From Promicromonosporaceae bacterium (GTDB taxonomy: Bacteria > Actinomycetota > Actinomycetes > Actinomycetales > Cellulomonadaceae): 11,445 nt of DNA. The DNA lies in assembly GCA_009782865.1 (NCBI GenBank), contig WRIF01000020.1:1-11445 (forward strand). The letters run 5' to 3'. The notes under the pieces are model-generated. The model was not told the origin of the DNA. It searched no databases and saw only the letters and a list, made by a program, of their open reading frames with translations. Below, piece by piece: positions 902 to 11,445 of this stretch (positions are counted from its first letter, which is position 1; every line of letters begins with the position of its first letter). A program made the position numbers and the translations under genes.

Positions 902-1771
902 GTGACTTCTCCCGACGCCCGGACGGGGCGCCCGCTTGAGGTGACGCTCTCCAATGCGAGAGCCGACCGCGTCAAGCAGGTGCGCGCCCTGTCCGGGCGT
1001 TCGGCACGTCAGAGGCACGGCCAGTTTCTGGTGGAGGGGCCGCAGGGCGTGCGTGAGGCGGTTCGCTTTGCGGCCAGCGACGTCCGCGATGTCTACCTGA
1101 CCGAGGCGGCGGCCCGTCGCCATCCAGAGATCGTCGCCGCCGCGCAGGCCGCCGGCCTGTGGCTGCACCTGGGCAGCGACGAGGTGCTAGAGGCGATGAG
1201 CGCCAACAGCCAGGGCGCCCTTGCCGTGGTCAACGCCCGGACGTTTGGCGCTCCGCCGCTCGCGGGGCCCGATCACCGTCCGCGCCTGATCGCGATCCTT
1301 GCCAACGTGCGGGACCCCGGCAACGCCGGCACCGTGATCCGCGCGGCCGACGCCGCCGGCGCCGACCAGGTGCTCCTCGCCGGGGACAGCGTCGACCCGT
1401 ACAACCCGAAGACCGTTCGCTCGACCGCAGGTTCGCTCTTCCACCTGCCGGTGCGCGCCGGCCTGTCCCTGTCCGAGGCGATCGGCCAGGCGCGCGCCGC
1501 CGGCTGCACGGTCCTGGCCGCCGACGGCGCCGGCCCACATGACCTGGACGACCTGCTCGACGCGGCCGGAACCGGGCCGACCCCCGACCTTTCGCGGCCC
1601 ACCGCCTGGGTGTTCGGCAACGAGGCCTGGGGCCTCTCCCCGGCAGATCGCTCCCTCTGCGATGCGGCGGTCCGGGTTCCCCTCCGGGGCCCCGCCGAGT
1701 CTCTCAACCTGGCCACCGCCGCCGCGGTCTGCCTGTATGCCAGCTCGCGCGCCCAGCGCCGAGTTCCCTAA
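902..1771 (+). CDS. TrmH/SpoU-family RNA 2'-O-ribose methyltransferase (TsnR-like)
   Basis: This is a 289-residue SPOUT-class enzyme that uses S-adenosylmethionine to methylate a ribose 2'-OH in RNA, probably 23S rRNA. Residues about 20-110 form the substrate-binding domain, with the typical RHGQFLVEGPQGVREAV segment. The trefoil-knot catalytic domain shows motif 1 NVRDPGNAGTVIRAADAAG (135-153, with the key Asn and Arg), motif 2 VFGNEAWGLS (237-246) and motif 3 VPLRGPAESLNLATAAA (259-275). Its position after rplT matches the M. tuberculosis gene annotated tsnR. The exact target nucleotide cannot be read from the sequence. The start is GTG, 5 bases after rplT, with no clear Shine-Dalgarno site, so translational coupling is likely. 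Its TAA stop overlaps the TAG of the convergent gene. Confidence 0.93.
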   Translation: MTSPDARTGRPLEVTLSNARADRVKQVRALSGRSARQRHGQFLVEGPQGVREAVRFAASDVRDVYLTEAAARRHPEIVAAAQAAGLWLHLGSDEVLEAMSANSQGALAVVNARTFGAPPLAGPDHRPRLIAILANVRDPGNAGTVIRAADAAGADQVLLAGDSVDPYNPKTVRSTAGSLFHLPVRAGLSLSEAIGQARAAGCTVLAADGAGPHDLDDLLDAAGTGPTPDLSRPTAWVFGNEAWGLSPADRSLCDAAVRVPLRGPAESLNLATAAAVCLYASSRAQRRVP

Positions 1772-2754
1772 CACGCGGGATCGCAGATCAGGCGGGAAAG
1801 CGCCTCGGTCAAGGTGAAGGAGCCAACGCTTGAGGTGGTGGCGACCAGCGGATCGATGGCGATCCACGCGCCCCCCGCCACCGAATAGTCGCCACTCCAG
1901 AACGTGGTCAGGCGCACCTCGACATCCTCGAACCCTCCGTCGGAGCCGACCTTGGTCCAGGTGTGACCGACCCAGGAGGCGTCGGGCAGCGGCTGGCCTG
2001 GTACCCAGCGACGCCCAGGATCGCCGGTGCGCAACCGGGTGCCATCGCCGAAGTCCCACTCGTACTCGACAGGGGTGGCGCGAATCGTCACCCGCGTTCC
2101 GAGGCCGATGAACTCCTGTAACTGTGGGGCGGCCTCGACATAGACCGGGTAGTAGGTGTTCAGGAGCAGTTCGGCAATGGCCCCGGTCTGGACCTCTGCC
2201 GTGGGGGAGGCAAGGGGCAAGGAGGCCCACGCCCGGACGGCCGCCGTTTCCAGTCCGCCACTTGGACGGCAGCCCGCCGCCCGCAGGAGCCGCGCCGTGA
2301 TCACCCCATCGCGTGAGGCCAAACTCCACAACGGCGAGACGGCGTACTCGCCTAGCTCACAGGCTGGAGCGACCGCCGCCCGGTGGGCAGCTCGGCAGCG
2401 TTCGGTCTGCCAGACCTCCAAGGCGTTGCTCTCCCCGAGGGCCTCACACACCGCCTCGGGAGTGGTGACCAGGTGCCGCCGCTGCCCAGGGGCGCGCCGG
2501 CGGGAGTGGTCGGCGGGCGCGCCGGGTCCAGACCTGGACTCAACATCGAACGATCCGTCGCCCGCCGAGCCGGAATGGGTTGTGTCGTCCGCCTCGGCCG
2601 CCGGCTTCCCCGCCGATGAGACTCCGACCGGCCCGGCCACGCCGGACACGGGGTGGGGGAGGGCGGTGGTGGGGGCCAGGCCGGCCGGCAGGAGTGAGGA
2701 GATATAGAGGGCCGTGCCCAGCAGGGCGGCCAGGGGGGAGTCAAAGGGTTGCAC
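1768..2754 (-). CDS. Secreted PKD-like domain protein
   Basis: This 328-residue protein starts at a GTG with an in-frame TAA two codons upstream, so it cannot extend further on this strand. Residues about 8-30 are hydrophobic (LAALLGTALYISSLLPAGLA) and resemble a signal peptide, although no basic residue precedes them. An Ala/Ser/Asp/Gly-rich linker follows to about residue 90. Residues 231-238 read YEWDFGDG, the hallmark of PKD-type beta-sandwich domains found in surface proteins, followed by GHTW and beta-rich sequence. Several cysteines are present, including a C-terminal ICDPAC, and may form disulfides. No catalytic motif is visible. It may be a cell-surface or secreted binding protein, but the ligand is unknown. 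It converges on the methyltransferase gene with a 4-base stop overlap. Confidence 0.8.
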   Translation of the reverse strand: MQPFDSPLAALLGTALYISSLLPAGLAPTTALPHPVSGVAGPVGVSSAGKPAAEADDTTHSGSAGDGSFDVESRSGPGAPADHSRRRAPGQRRHLVTTPEAVCEALGESNALEVWQTERCRAAHRAAVAPACELGEYAVSPLWSLASRDGVITARLLRAAGCRPSGGLETAAVRAWASLPLASPTAEVQTGAIAELLLNTYYPVYVEAAPQLQEFIGLGTRVTIRATPVEYEWDFGDGTRLRTGDPGRRWVPGQPLPDASWVGHTWTKVGSDGGFEDVEVRLTTFWSGDYSVAGGAWIAIDPLVATTSSVGSFTLTEALSRLICDPAC

Positions 2755-8560: not shown

Positions 8561-9383
8561 CCCAGGACCCGCGAGGACCGCCCTGGTCACCGGGGCATCC
8601 CGCGGCATCGGCCGCGCGATTGCACTTGGACTGGCGGAGGCTGGGCTCGATGTTGCCTTGGTGGCGACCTCCACGGAGCGCCTGGGTGAGGTGGCCGAAG
8701 AGATCGTGGCCTTGGGTCGTCGTGCCGTCGCCATTGGCATTGACGTCTCAGACCCGGCGGGGGTGTCGGCCGCCGCCGCGCGGGCCGTCTCCGAGCTGGG
8801 CGGCATCGACCTGCTGGTCAATGCGGCTGGGGTGTTTGAGGCGGAGGTGCCGCTGTGGGAGGCCGACCCCGACCAGTGGTGGCGCACCCTGGAGGTCAAC
8901 CTGCGGGGCCCATTCCTGTTGAGCCACGCGCTCATCCCGCAGATGCTGGGGCGCGGGGGAGGGCGAGTGATCGACCTGTCGTCCGGGGCCGCGTGCTACG
9001 AGATGCAACGCTCGACGGCCTACACCGCTTCCAAGACGGCCTTGGCCCGGATGGGCGCGAGCCTGCACGACGAGGGCCACGAACTGGGGCTGAGGGTGTT
9101 CGAGTTGGCGCCGGGAGTGGTGATCACCGACATGACTCGGGACGCGCTTTTGCACGTGGGTCGTAAGGAGTGGACGCCGGTAGAGCGCTCGGTCGAACTG
9201 GCCGTCGCCATCGCGCAAGGCGATCTGGACGGTTGCTCGGGCTGGATCATCCGGGCGGGCGCCGACTCAGTGGCCGACCTGCAGGCCCTGGCCGCCGCGT
9301 CACCGCCGCCGACCGCCCGCCGCCTGCGCGTCGTCCCGGCCGCGCCGGAAGACTCCCTGTTTGGTTCTCCTGCTGCCCGCTAG
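8553..9383 (+). CDS. Short-chain dehydrogenase/reductase (SDR), classical type
   Basis: This 276-residue NAD(P)-dependent oxidoreductase has the Rossmann nucleotide motif TGASRGIG (13-20), Asp64 for adenine contact, NAAG (90-93), catalytic Asn116, Ser144, Tyr157 and Lys161 (YTASK), and the APGVVITDM segment after the active site. All four tetrad residues are present, so it should be active. Arg17 in the glycine motif hints at NADP(H), but this is weak. The substrate is unknown. A C-terminal extension after about residue 255 is Pro/Arg-rich and looks disordered. The start is GTG 8553, overlapping the last 8 bases of pheT, so it is probably co-transcribed with pheST and translationally coupled. 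Nothing in the sequence shows a link to tRNA charging. Confidence 0.9.
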   Translation: MASPGPARTALVTGASRGIGRAIALGLAEAGLDVALVATSTERLGEVAEEIVALGRRAVAIGIDVSDPAGVSAAAARAVSELGGIDLLVNAAGVFEAEVPLWEADPDQWWRTLEVNLRGPFLLSHALIPQMLGRGGGRVIDLSSGAACYEMQRSTAYTASKTALARMGASLHDEGHELGLRVFELAPGVVITDMTRDALLHVGRKEWTPVERSVELAVAIAQGDLDGCSGWIIRAGADSVADLQALAAASPPPTARRLRVVPAAPEDSLFGSPAAR

Positions 9384-9384
9384 G

Positions 9385-9447
9385 CCTGCCAGACCCCGAG
9401 GCCGCAAACCCGATGCCGGGAACCCGTCATTTGGGTGTCTGCGCAGG
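9385..9447 (+). terminator. Possible terminator after the pheS-pheT-SDR operon
   Basis: CCTGCCAGAC (9385-9394) pairs with GTCTGCGCAGG (9437-9447) with one bulged C, and CCC/GGG can extend it inward across a further bulge. It encloses about 35 bases. It begins one base after the SDR stop and is followed by a C/T-rich stretch instead of a T-run. Many actinobacterial terminators lack T-runs, so the role is plausible but uncertain. The rest of the gap, to about 9490, holds nothing I recognise. Confidence 0.3.
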
Positions 9448-9496
9448 TCACCCTACCCTTCTCGCGGCCAATGCGGCTGGAGTGCCCGAGCAGGCC

Positions 9497-9525
9497 TAGA
9501 CAGGGCGGTTCAGCGACGATAGGTT
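9497..9525 (+). promoter_or_regulatory. Candidate promoter of the secreted-peptide cassette
   Basis: TAGACA (9497-9502) matches the TTGACA consensus at five of six positions. TAGGTT (9520-9525) fits TANNNT, and the two are separated by exactly 17 bases. The predicted transcription start is near 9532, about 65 bases before the peptide ATG. This would make the cassette an independent transcription unit from pheS-pheT-SDR. Confidence 0.5.
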
Positions 9526-9530
9526 GCGAC

Positions 9531-9559
9531 CATCATCCGGACAAACGTCCCGGATGATG
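9531..9559 (+). promoter_or_regulatory. Stem-loop at predicted 5' end of the peptide mRNA, or operator
   Basis: CATCATCCGG (9531-9540) and CCGGATGATG (9550-9559) form a perfect 10-bp inverted repeat. An alternative fold gives 12 bp with an AAAC loop and one bulged C: CATCATCCGGAC against GTCC-C-GGATGATG. If the upstream promoter is real, the stem lies right at the transcript 5' end, where such hairpins protect mRNA from decay. As DNA, it could equally be a binding site for a dimeric regulator covering +1. No T-run follows, so it is not a typical terminator. Confidence 0.55.
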
Positions 9560-9596
9560 CGGGCCCGGCAACTACAAATCACGACGAGAGGGAACA

Positions 9597-9935
9597 ATGA
9601 AGCTCCAATCTAGCGTGTTACGACGCGCTTCAGCCGCGGCGATGGCAGCGGTACTTGCAATCGGCCTAGCGGCCACCCCGGCACATGCTGCATCTGCCAG
9701 CGGTACCCACAACTGCTTGACGCCAAACCAGCAGCAGGGTGTCCTCACGGCCACCGTTCAGGGTTCATGGTCGATGAGGGCGCCAGGCAGCACCGTAACC
9801 AACAGCGGTCCAGGCACTTCAGGCAACTTGACTCGGACCGAACGAGCAAACCGCTTGCTCGGCGGGACCTGGAGCATGACTGCGGGCATCCGAATCGTCA
9901 GCCGGACACCTGCATGTGTAATGAACGCCGTCTAG
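9597..9935 (+). CDS. Small secreted two-cysteine peptide, possibly bacteriocin-like
   Basis: This 112-residue precursor begins MKLQSSVLRR, continues with a hydrophobic Ala/Leu segment and ends the signal peptide at ATPAHA, with likely cleavage after Ala31. The mature peptide is about 81 residues. It has only two cysteines, Cys40 and Cys107, near its two ends, which could form one disulfide. It contains a repeated motif, QGSWSM (55-60) and GGTWSM (89-94), around a Ser/Thr/Gly/Asn-rich centre. A ribosome-binding site AGAGGGA lies at 9587-9593. Spaced G-x-W motifs in a small secreted peptide, with a lipoprotein and export adaptor downstream, recall lactococcin-972-type bacteriocins. However, the Tyr/His-rich middle of that family is missing, so the assignment is tentative. 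I do not recognise a specific family. Confidence 0.75.
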   Translation: MKLQSSVLRRASAAAMAAVLAIGLAATPAHAASASGTHNCLTPNQQQGVLTATVQGSWSMRAPGSTVTNSGPGTSGNLTRTERANRLLGGTWSMTAGIRIVSRTPACVMNAV

Positions 9936-9947
9936 GCGACCACTCCG

Positions 9948-9982
9948 CAGCGTGCGGCCCTGCCTCTTTGGGCCGCACGCTG
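9948..9982 (+). terminator. Perfect 13-bp hairpin between peptide and lipoprotein genes, attenuator candidate
   Basis: CAGCGTGCGGCCC (9948-9960) and GGGCCGCACGCTG (9970-9982) are perfectly complementary around a 9-base loop, TGCCTCTTT. It starts 12 bases after the peptide stop. No T-run follows directly, though the next stretch is pyrimidine-rich. It could act as a partial terminator that keeps peptide mRNA abundant and lipoprotein/exporter mRNA lower, as often seen after bacteriocin structural genes, or as a 3'-end stabiliser. The preferred lipoprotein TTG start (9968) begins inside the loop. Confidence 0.7.
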
Positions 9983-10642
9983 GCCCTTGCCGCGTCCTTT
10001 GTCCTTGTGGCCGCCCTGACGGCCTGCTCCGCTGACAATTCTGCCGATAACGAGGATGGCTCGCAAGCGCCATCAGCCGCCGTTGAGACAGCATCCTCGG
10101 CTGACGACCTTTCTGCCGATAACGGGGATGGGCCTCAAGTGCCGTCGACCGCTGTCGAGGCATCACCCTCAGTCGATGACGCCTTTGTTGAGCTCGAGGA
10201 GGAGTCTGGGGCAAGTCAAGACATTCGGCCAATGACGCTGCGCGAACGCAATGATGCAACCGCTGAGTGCATTCGACAGTGGGGAATAGAGGTGTTCCCT
10301 GGAAATCCGAACGAGCCTCCAAGTTCAAAGGTAGATAATACCTTGTTTGGGCCTGATCGTACATTAGAAATTATTCTTGACTGCCAAGATCGTTATCCGG
10401 ACATATCGCCGCCTTCGACGGTGGAGAGTGCTACGGAGTTTTACTATAGGCAGTTGGCTTGGTTCAACTGTATGGCTGATGCTGGGATGATCACGGCTCC
10501 GCCTCCATCCTTGGAGACTGTGGTCGATCAGATGCTTCGTCTGGGAGGGAGCGACTTCGATCCGACCGGCATGGCAATCGCTGAAGGGACACCTTTCGAT
10601 GCCGCAGTTCGCGCCTGCCCCTGGCCCGACTTCTTCGAGTAG
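9968..10642 (+). CDS. Putative lipoprotein of the peptide cassette
   Basis: A lipobox, LTAC, follows a hydrophobic segment (TLALAASFVLVAA), so the protein should be lipid-anchored on the outer face of the membrane. With TTG 9968 the signal peptide is a typical 19 residues. An ATG at 9914 is also in frame, overlaps the peptide gene by 22 bases and gives a 37-residue leader. Neither has a clear Shine-Dalgarno site. After the Cys comes an acidic Ser/Ala/Asp linker with two 24-residue tandem copies beginning SADN, then a globular domain (roughly the last 140 residues) with four cysteines (AEC, LDC, FNC, RAC) that may form two disulfides. No known domain is recognised. Its place between a secreted peptide and an export adaptor suggests self-immunity or a transport accessory role, by inference. 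The domain is noticeably richer in A/T than its neighbours. Confidence 0.75.
   Translation: MGRTLALAASFVLVAALTACSADNSADNEDGSQAPSAAVETASSADDLSADNGDGPQVPSTAVEASPSVDDAFVELEEESGASQDIRPMTLRERNDATAECIRQWGIEVFPGNPNEPPSSKVDNTLFGPDRTLEIILDCQDRYPDISPPSTVESATEFYYRQLAWFNCMADAGMITAPPPSLETVVDQMLRLGGSDFDPTGMAIAEGTPFDAAVRACPWPDFFE
10040..10183 (+). repeat. Tandem 72-base duplication in the lipoprotein linker
   Basis: Two adjacent in-frame units of 72 bases (10040-10111 and 10112-10183) each encode 24 residues, starting TCTGCCGATAACG in both copies. Fifteen of 24 residues are the same: SADN-x-DG-x-Q-x-PS-x-AVE, then Ser and DD near the end. This shows an older tandem duplication that lengthened a flexible spacer between the lipid anchor and the folded domain. 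Confidence 0.75.
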
Positions 10643-10650
10643 AGGGATGC

Positions 10651-11445
10651 ATGAGTAGAACCGGGAAGCGTGGAACGCTGGCGGCGGCGGGCTGGGTGAC
10701 GTTTGCCCTGGTGGCCGGCGCGGCCGGCGTCTTGGCCGGTCGAGGCTTTGCCGCCGACGAGGCAGAGCAGGTGGTCGAGGCGCCGGTTTCGCACGAGGTC
10801 ACGGTGGGGACGGTGGGCCACGAGGTGCGGTTTGAGGCGCAGGGCAGTTGGCCGATGGCCCCGCTCGTTTGGGCTACTCAGGGCGGAGTGGTTACCTCGG
10901 TCGACCTGCCGGACTCAGGTCGGGTTGAGGCAGGCGATCAACTGCTGTCCGTAGCCCTTCGCCCCGTGGTTGCCGTGCCCGGTGAGGTTCCGGCCTCTCG
11001 CGATCTGACGGTCGGCACGCGCGGTCCGGACGTACGGCAACTGCAGGAGTTCCTGGTGGATCAAGAGCACCTAGCCGTGGAGCCGGATGGCGTGTTTCGT
11101 GACCACACCAGGCGGGCGGTCGTCGCCTGGCAGCGCGAAGTAGGCTTCCCCGCTGACGGAGTGGTGCGGTTAGGTGACGTGGCGTTCTTCGCGGAACTTC
11201 CGGCCTGGGTGACGCTCAGCCCGGGGGTGGCGGTTGGAGCCGGCGTCGGAGCTGGTCAGCCGCTCATGGAGGGCGCCATCGGCTCTGCCGTCGTCGAGAT
11301 AGTCACCTCCCCGGAACAGGCCGCGCTGCTCCCGGAACCAAAGGCGTTGCTAGCGCAGGTGGCCGGCCATTCTTGGCCCGGAAGGTTGGGTGTTCCCGCC
11401 ACCGGCGCCGACGGTCAGGTACGAATCCCAGTGGAGTCGAACAGG
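10651..11445 (+). CDS. Membrane-anchored export adaptor with peptidoglycan-binding domain (partial)
   Basis: The frame is open from ATG 10651 to the window edge (265 codons), so the C-terminus is missing. Residues 3-9 are basic, and 10-30 form a single membrane anchor. Residues 78-101 (GGVVTSVDLPDSGRVEAGDQLL) resemble one half of the lipoyl/biotinyl-like hairpin of HlyD/MacA-type adaptors. Residues 118-180 are a PG_binding_1 domain with GTRGPDVRQLQEFL, DGVFRDHTRRAVVAWQ and the DG-x-VRLGD ending. Later sequence (VGAGVGAGQPLMEG) fits the second half of the adaptor. Such proteins usually work with an ABC ATPase and an FtsX/MacB-like permease, which would be expected beyond the right edge. The gene begins 8 bases after the lipoprotein stop with AGAGGG as ribosome-binding site, consistent with one operon. 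Confidence 0.85.
   Translation, partial: MSRTGKRGTLAAAGWVTFALVAGAAGVLAGRGFAADEAEQVVEAPVSHEVTVGTVGHEVRFEAQGSWPMAPLVWATQGGVVTSVDLPDSGRVEAGDQLLSVALRPVVAVPGEVPASRDLTVGTRGPDVRQLQEFLVDQEHLAVEPDGVFRDHTRRAVVAWQREVGFPADGVVRLGDVAFFAELPAWVTLSPGVAVGAGVGAGQPLMEGAIGSAVVEIVTSPEQAALLPEPKALLAQVAGHSWPGRLGVPATGADGQVRIPVESNR

What the first reader, a model, noticed from the sequence alone, without database searches (positions are those of the whole stretch)
9597..11445. Candidate peptide export/bacteriocin-like cassette: secreted two-Cys peptide, four-Cys lipoprotein, peptidoglycan-binding adaptor
Seen: a signal-peptide-bearing 112-residue protein, a lipobox protein and a membrane adaptor with a PG_binding_1 domain lie in tight order on one strand behind their own candidate promoter. 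Known: HlyD/MacA-type adaptors serve ABC exporters, and lactococcin-972-type bacteriocins are small Sec-secreted peptides encoded beside membrane and ABC proteins. Inferred: the peptide is a toxin or signal, the lipoprotein gives immunity or helps transport, and an ABC ATPase plus permease follow outside the window. The peptide and lipoprotein match no family I can name.
Basis: partly seen in the sequence, partly recalled or inferred. Interest (0 to 1): 0.72.

Follow-up and report, generated by a model that had tools for sequence, protein, structure and literature searches.

The report
New bacteriocin-like cassette with wall-bound pump
An actinobacterium carries a gene set, with counterparts at dozens of places in related genomes, for a small two-cysteine protein predicted to be secreted and belonging to no named family, a lipoprotein and a pump adaptor with a cell-wall-binding domain; it is likely a weapon-and-self-protection kit, because in two relatives a similar pump set follows a gene of a known bacteriocin family.

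Summary
In detail: a 112-aa protein with a signal-peptide-like start and two cysteines, a lipobox protein with four further cysteines and a PG_binding_1 adaptor lie in order; the contig ends inside the adaptor. The claimed promoter found no support. In relatives the adaptor defines a sharp subfamily (at least 218 bits versus at most 138). A two-Cys secreted ORF lies upstream in 40 of 77 subfamily copies versus 1 of 32 other adaptors; in loci fetched blind, 19 of 44. The peptide family matches no Pfam or NCBIfam model, PF09683 included, and is predicted as a confident all-beta domain. Two Pfam-certified Lactococcin_972 genes head a sister cassette in the same order. Payload genes diverge to near background while the pump stays conserved. 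Best reading: a Sec-secreted bacteriocin-like protein with a lipoprotein/MacAB-like unit that clears it from the producer's envelope. Toxicity and immunity are untested. Co-divergence of peptide and lipoprotein was not detected. It is a new variant of a known kind.

The parts
9531..9559 (+). perfect 10-bp inverted repeat (arms 9531-9540 and 9550-9559), 37 bases before the peptide start; operator or leader hairpin, role unknown
   Evidence: sequence; RNA fold of 9515-9575 -24.9 kcal/mol, z -3.3
9597..9935 (+). small two-Cys protein predicted to be secreted (112 aa; predicted signal 1-31, mature part from 9690), the payload
   Evidence: no convincing Pfam or NCBIfam family; all-beta AlphaFold2 model, mean pLDDT 91
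9948..9982 (+). 13-bp perfect stem-loop between peptide and lipoprotein, covering the TTG start; possible terminator/attenuator or start-site mask
   Evidence: fold -30.5 kcal/mol, z -4.0; perfect stems of 10 bp or more within 90 bases after the peptide stop in 6 of 39 loci, this one included
9914..10642 (+). four-Cys lipoprotein (start at TTG 9968 or ATG 9914; lipobox Cys at 10025; helical domain from about 10193)
   Evidence: AlphaFold2 model helical, mean pLDDT 82.6
10651..11445 (+). membrane-anchored adaptor with PG_binding_1 (residues 124-172), cut by the contig end; barrel-sandwich-like stretch before the PG domain, inferred from its relatives
   Evidence: subfamily

Best explanation
The window holds the first three genes of a five-gene cassette, read whole in relatives, that likely makes and manages a secreted bacteriocin-like protein: a two-Cys all-beta protein (fold and Sec export predicted), a lipoprotein, and the peptidoglycan-binding adaptor of a predicted MacB-like ABC pump. 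Shown: gene order, the PG_binding_1 domain, ATPase and permease genes after the adaptor in relatives, recurrence, the two-Cys layout, the divergence contrast, and a Lactococcin_972 gene in the payload place of a sister cassette in two relatives. Inferred: the signal peptide sends the protein out through Sec; the two cysteines form a disulfide that ties the ends of a beta sandwich; the protein attacks competitors at the cell envelope (perhaps a wall precursor, by analogy with lactococcin 972). The lipoprotein captures it at the producer's membrane and hands it to the adaptor-ATPase-permease unit, which uses ATP to push it outward, while the adaptor's PG domain moors the pump to the wall. This is self-protection in the manner of YknWXYZ against SDP.
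For: Two-Cys secreted ORFs upstream of 40 of 77 subfamily adaptors versus 1 of 32 other adaptors (Fisher p 2.7e-7); in the 44 loci fetched blind 19, plus 3 with the ORF on the divergent strand. The lipoprotein profile hits 74 of 75 subfamily loci, on either strand of the fetched stretch; the one without has 17 bases upstream. ATPase and permease downstream in 66 of 72. Real Lactococcin_972 genes (PF09683, E 1.2e-8 and 8.7e-8) head the order peptide, lipobox protein with four further Cys, adaptor-like protein, ABC_tran ATPase, 4-5-TM membrane protein in L183 and L184. In 9 non-redundant pairs with adaptor identity of at least 50%: peptide 33%, lipoprotein 36% (shuffled background 28%), adaptor 55%, permease 59%, ATPase 71%. 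Three peptide and three lipoprotein genes in one array (L068), and more lipoproteins than peptides in L066, L067 and L140. Papers: MacB-type transporters do not move substrates across the inner membrane but do work outside it, and Gram-positive adaptors may clear substances from the space between membrane and wall (PMC5985334, passages); YknWXYZ protects against the disulfide-bearing SDP toxin (PMC4887032, passages); Lcn972-type proteins are thought to be Sec-secreted, form a beta sandwich and interact with lipid II (PMC11796350, passages).
Confidence: 0.55

Rival explanations
1. Wall-passage exporter: the protein leaves through Sec, and the lipoprotein-adaptor-ABC unit with its PG domain carries it through or away from the wall to the outside; it is delivery, not immunity.
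For: The MacB family is reported to export protein toxins and signals from the periplasm (PMC5985334, passages); the PG_binding domain is in 15 of 15 adaptors of A1; the pump is conserved while the payload varies.
Against: [quoted passage not shown] pump loci without an acceptable peptide (34 of 77) would then have nothing to export.
Confidence: 0.22
2. Signal or sensing cassette: the peptide is a secreted signal and the lipoprotein and FtsX-type ABC unit sense it, as in Bce-type sensing.
For: MacB-like transporters also take part in antibiotic sensing (PMC5985334, passages); the peptides are variable.
Against: An adaptor with a PG domain suits a conduit better than a sensor (inference); no regulator gene was looked for systematically, so this is not excluded; a signal would be expected to be better conserved within a genus (inference).
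Confidence: 0.12
3. Secreted inhibitor or binder (protease inhibitor, lectin-like) of non-bacteriocin function; the pump is a general envelope pump that happens to be neighbouring.
For: A peptidase-inhibitor I36 protein (E 2e-7) precedes the lipoprotein-adaptor-ABC order in the more distant locus L090; weak fold resemblance to lectin and C1q-like sandwiches.
Against: Co-occurrence is specific to one adaptor subfamily; two PF09683 bacteriocin genes occupy the same slot of a sister cassette; fold matches are too weak to name.
Confidence: 0.11

Closest known systems
Lactococcin 972 family (PF09683), including streptococcin B and mediterrocin
   Same: small protein with a Sec-type signal, mature part of roughly 60-85 residues, predicted or solved all-beta, encoded beside ABC and membrane genes; in L183 and L184 PF09683 genes fill the same place before a lipoprotein, adaptor, ATPase and membrane protein
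   Different: no sequence or profile match; two conserved Cys; partners in relatives are a lipoprotein, an adaptor and an FtsX-type permease instead of the seven-TM DUF1430 protein described for Lcn972 loci (PMC12345188, passage)
YknWXYZ of Bacillus (immunity to SDP)
   Same: MFP adaptor, separate ATPase, MacB-like permease; guards against a toxin with one disulfide (PMC4887032, passages); Sec export of SdpC is recalled
   Different: here the payload gene is in the same cassette, the adaptor carries a PG_binding_1 domain, and a 4-Cys lipoprotein takes part; YknW was not searched for
LanI lipoprotein plus LanFEG ABC immunity of lantibiotics (recalled, no call)
   Same: lipoprotein plus ABC unit thought to protect the producer
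   Different: shared sequence was not tested; here an FtsX-type permease and an adaptor take part
Actinobacterial lipoproteins with two C-x4-G-hydrophobic repeats beside adaptor-ABC-permease operons ('CMREHGV' type; name recalled)
   Same: lipobox, several Cys, same place before an adaptor (10 of 29 control loci give weak profile hits; gene lists)
   Different: two-Cys peptide absent there (1 of 32 hits, judged chance); the adaptor scores at most 133 bits with the A1 profile

Membership tests
Lactococcin 972 (PF09683) | match to the Pfam model over its cut-off | tested here: not met
   none of 48 peptides matched it at E 0.5; hhalign against 12 PF09683 peptides of the order, probability 0.1%
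Lactococcin 972 (PF09683) | Sec signal peptide on a small protein | tested here: met
   rule-based signal detection of my own; no trained predictor was available
Lactococcin 972 (PF09683) | beta-sandwich fold like 2LGN | tested here: inconclusive
   all-beta model pLDDT 91; PDB search gave no clear match and 2LGN was not in the listed rows
Lactococcin 972 (PF09683) | seven-TM DUF1430 partner plus ABC protein | tested here: inconclusive
   in the two relatives scanned with Pfam (L033, L050) the membrane partner is FtsX; in the others it was judged by TM count, mostly 4-5; the window itself ends before this gene
MacAB/YknXYZ-type ABC unit | barrel-sandwich adaptor of the membrane fusion protein kind | tested here: met
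   Biotin_lipoyl_2 in 7 of 15 and RND_mfp in 6 of 15 adaptors at E 0.01; the window's own cut copy matches only PG_binding_1 clearly
MacAB/YknXYZ-type ABC unit | FtsX-type permease with separate ATPase | tested here: met
   PF02687 and PF00005 over cut-off in L033 and L050; in the window not readable because the contig ends
MacAB/YknXYZ-type ABC unit | protects the producer from a secreted toxin | not testable with these tools
   needs deletion and sensitivity assay
Bacteriocin (functional class) | inhibits other bacteria, producer immune | not testable with these tools
   needs expression and inhibition assay

The most novel reading that the evidence does not exclude
Actinomycetes own a plug-and-play bacteriocin platform: one conserved wall-moored lipoprotein-adaptor-MacB unit whose payload slot is filled by unrelated small secreted proteins (the new hypervariable two-Cys beta family, Lactococcin_972, probably I36-type proteins), with tandem payload-lipoprotein pairs and spare lipoproteins generating private weapon-and-immunity sets.
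Probability: 0.4. Interest if true: 0.78.

Novelty: new variant of a known kind. Interest (0 to 1): 0.62.

Why it matters
If true, it adds an unnamed, fast-diverging family of secreted antibacterial proteins that the profile libraries searched here do not see, together with a rule for finding them (look upstream of this adaptor subfamily). It would also give a handle on an open point: PMC11796350 states that the function of the immunity and transport genes of lactococcin 972 loci has not been experimentally verified; the two Lactococcin_972 genes that stand before this kind of pump make a lipoprotein/MacB route of self-protection directly testable. It would also suggest a role for a patchy but recurrent actinobacterial operon of 4-Cys lipoprotein, PG-binding adaptor, ATPase and permease.

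Full report
What is there. The window is the entire contig G000:C20 of a fragmented genome (2.0 Mb, 367 contigs, 78% complete). The genus is probably that of Xylanimonas cellulosilytica: a peptide relative is named so in the protein database on a contig of 3,742,776 bases, the length of the main contig of same-genus genome G010. The finding lies at the contig's 3' end, 213 bases after a short-chain dehydrogenase gene that follows pheS and pheT (pheS by eye). Peptide 9597-9935, lipoprotein to 10642 and adaptor 10651-11445 (cut by the contig end) follow each other on the + strand. The adaptor has PG_binding_1 (E 7.4e-10). Peptide and lipoprotein have no convincing Pfam or NCBIfam family. No sigma-70 site was found in 9350-10050. 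A 10-bp inverted repeat precedes the peptide, and a 13-bp hairpin (z -4.0) separates peptide and lipoprotein. Perfect stems of 10 bp or more within 90 bases after the peptide stop were seen in 6 of 39 loci, the window included, while in many others the candidate lipoprotein start overlaps or touches the peptide stop.

The rest of the cassette. The closest adaptor outside the genome (G007, same genus, 63% identity) is followed by an ABC_tran ATPase and an FtsX permease. A profile of 15 adaptors (A1) splits the adaptors of the family cleanly: at least 222 bits, then nothing until 138 bits, and locally at least 218 versus at most 133. At E 1e-35 33 of 150 genomes of the family have a match, six of them only by the lower-scoring kind, so 27 of 150 have the subfamily; at E 1e-55 34 of 396 genomes of the order and 9 of 394 of the class. 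These samples overlap, and only the best few candidates per genome were scored. I fetched 106 stretches around adaptors, one of them twice, giving 105 loci. With the window, and leaving out L034 and L047, which repeat L167 and L046, this gave 77 subfamily copies in 75 loci and 32 other copies. ATPase (Walker and signature motifs) and permease (at least three hydrophobic stretches) both follow in 66 of 72 subfamily copies with at least 2.2 kb downstream; L035, L144, L151, L153, L161 and L167 fail one or both of these simple tests.

The payload. The rule, set before counting but after seeing the first loci, was: signal-like start, exactly two Cys in the mature part, the first within 25 residues and the last within 10 of the ends, same strand, within 3.2 kb upstream. 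It is met by 40 of 77 subfamily copies and 1 of 32 others (p 2.7e-7). Without L043, whose hit looks spurious, it is 39; four more loci (L069, L132, L140, L166) have such a protein only on the divergent strand, together 43 of 77. The control copies are mostly the lower-scoring adaptor hits in the same genomes. Because A1 was built largely from loci where I had already seen peptides, the fairer figure is that of the 44 loci fetched by adaptor score alone (L123-L166): 19, and 22 if divergently placed peptides are counted. The 34 copies without an acceptable peptide include four with under 1 kb upstream, and some with candidates outside the rule: L161 by profile (E 1e-11), L064 and L123 with a five-Cys protein, L063 with a two-Cys protein that lacks a good signal start. 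The 48 distinct peptides (A2) share little beyond the two Cys, a frequent G-T/S shortly before the first Cys and a W-x-V near the second (mean column identity 19%). The invariance of the two Cys is partly imposed by the rule; two further peptides found by profile rather than by that rule (in L185 and L187) also have two in the mature part. No member matches Pfam or NCBIfam convincingly. AlphaFold2 gives a seven-stranded all-beta domain with mean pLDDT 91; PDB comparison shows only common-sandwich resemblance.

The lipoprotein. A profile hits 74 of 75 subfamily loci somewhere in the fetched stretch, the exception having 17 bases of DNA before the adaptor. Many of these loci supplied the seeds, but L157, L158 and L159, with the lipoprotein on the divergent strand, did not. 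In 83 aligned domains, of 90 extracted, four Cys and one Gly are invariant (the first Cys was used for trimming, and the seeds were chosen with at least three Cys). The pattern is two C-x4-G-hydrophobic repeats. The domain is predicted helical (pLDDT 82.6) with no PDB match at E 0.001.

Adaptor anatomy. In A1 the PG_binding_1 domain (profile positions about 117-172) follows a stretch that weakly matches membrane fusion proteins (positions 12-107; 9j3d E 0.0017, 3lnn E 0.0012); Biotin_lipoyl_2 is found in 7 of 15 and RND_mfp in 6 of 15 at E 0.01. Inference: the PG domain sits where Gram-negative adaptors carry the helical hairpin that reaches the outer-membrane channel, so that here the pump would be moored to the wall.

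Lactococcin 972 in the same slot. PF09683 was found in 14 of 297 genomes of the order (15 genes). In two loci (L183, L184) the PF09683 gene is followed by a lipobox protein with four further Cys, an adaptor-like protein, an ABC_tran ATPase and a 4-5-TM membrane protein. These adaptors score only 57 and 27 bits with A1, the lipoproteins E 1.5e-4 and 0.05 with the lipoprotein profile, Pfam sees no domain in the L183 adaptor, and FtsX is below its cut-off in L183 (16.1 bits) and absent in L184, so this is a sister cassette rather than the same subfamily. The other 13 genes of the order, and 10 new ones at 6 sites in the class (6 of 296 genomes), show no such lipoprotein or adaptor within 1.5 kb at E 0.01. 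Despite the shared slot, the two peptide families have no detectable sequence homology (12 PF09683 peptides compared).

Divergence. Among 27 non-redundant complete cassettes, nine pairs have adaptor identity of at least 50%. Their mean identities are peptide 33, lipoprotein 36, adaptor 55, permease 59, ATPase 71; shuffled backgrounds are 28.5 and 28.4 (Wilcoxon p 0.004 for permease against each payload gene). This is the pattern of a conserved machine with fast-changing payload. Against a simple cognate toxin-immunity pair: the partial correlation of peptide and lipoprotein identity given the pump is 0.03 (p 0.26), and lipoprotein identity follows the pump (0.40-0.49) more than peptide identity does (0.10-0.13). 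Peptide identities are close to saturation, so the test is weak.

Co-occurrence from the other side. Peptide profile hits in 150 family genomes: 27, of which 26 have a lipoprotein within 1.5 kb and 25 an adaptor within 4 kb. 24 of the 27 are the profile's own members; the three new ones are in G006:C59, G024 and the window's own genome (C13), and each of them has a lipoprotein or an adaptor beside it. Lipoprotein hits: 86, of which 56 have a subfamily adaptor within 4 kb; of the 30 others, five stand beside one of the lower-scoring adaptors, and the rest are at contig ends or have no listed adaptor near. So in this sample peptides were not found apart from the cassette, while lipoproteins sometimes are.

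Mobility and copy number. The pheT-dehydrogenase neighbourhood is kept in G007, G002 and G003, and none of the 5 same-genus dehydrogenase loci has a cassette gene within 1.5 kb. G+C falls to 0.57 over the lipoprotein against 0.63-0.75 before position 9600. The window's genome has at least two further cassette starts at contig ends: C13 (another two-Cys peptide plus a lipoprotein) and C73 (a lipoprotein). Repeats of the pump genes may have broken the assembly there (inference).

Mechanism. MacB-type transporters do not carry substrates across the membrane in which they sit but do work outside it, and Gram-positive adaptors are proposed to clear substances from the space between membrane and wall (PMC5985334, passages). 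YknWXYZ protects Bacillus from SDP, a toxin with one disulfide (PMC4887032, passages). Lcn972-type proteins are thought to use Sec, form a beta sandwich and act on lipid II, and the roles of their partner genes are unverified (PMC11796350, passages). I therefore favour self-protection of a secreted bacteriocin-like protein (0.55) over wall passage (0.22), sensing (0.12) and a non-bacteriocin role (0.11). Nothing here tests activity.

Verdict. New variant of a known kind; interest 0.62.

Noticed in passing
L185 (G000:C13, 2-776, - strand) and L186 (G000:C73, 1-528, - strand): The window's own genome has two more cassette starts, both running into contig ends: a second two-Cys peptide with a lipoprotein, and a third lipoprotein.
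   Followed up: partly
window 10025-10190: By eye, the linker of the lipoprotein contains an imperfect tandem repeat (twice roughly SADN-DG-Q-PS-AVE-S-S-DD).
   Followed up: no
L090 3754-8393: In a more distant chassis a peptidase-inhibitor I36 protein (E 2e-7) directly precedes lipoprotein, adaptor and ABC/permease reading frames: a possible third payload type.
   Followed up: partly
window 1768-2754, - strand: A 328-aa protein with a signal-like start and a PKD-like stretch (by eye) matches no Pfam family at E 1e-5.
   Followed up: no
window 9901-10800: G+C drops to 0.57-0.59 against 0.63-0.75 before position 9600, consistent with recent acquisition.
   Followed up: partly
L188 8002-8742, + strand: A second lipoprotein copy in G006 is split into two reading frames by a stop, a likely decayed copy near an intact one on the other strand.
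   Followed up: no
L036, L058, L127, L130, L150 and window, just after the peptide gene: Perfect GC-rich stems of 10-14 bp lie within 90 bases after the peptide stop; in many other loci lipoprotein start and peptide stop overlap or touch instead.
   Followed up: partly
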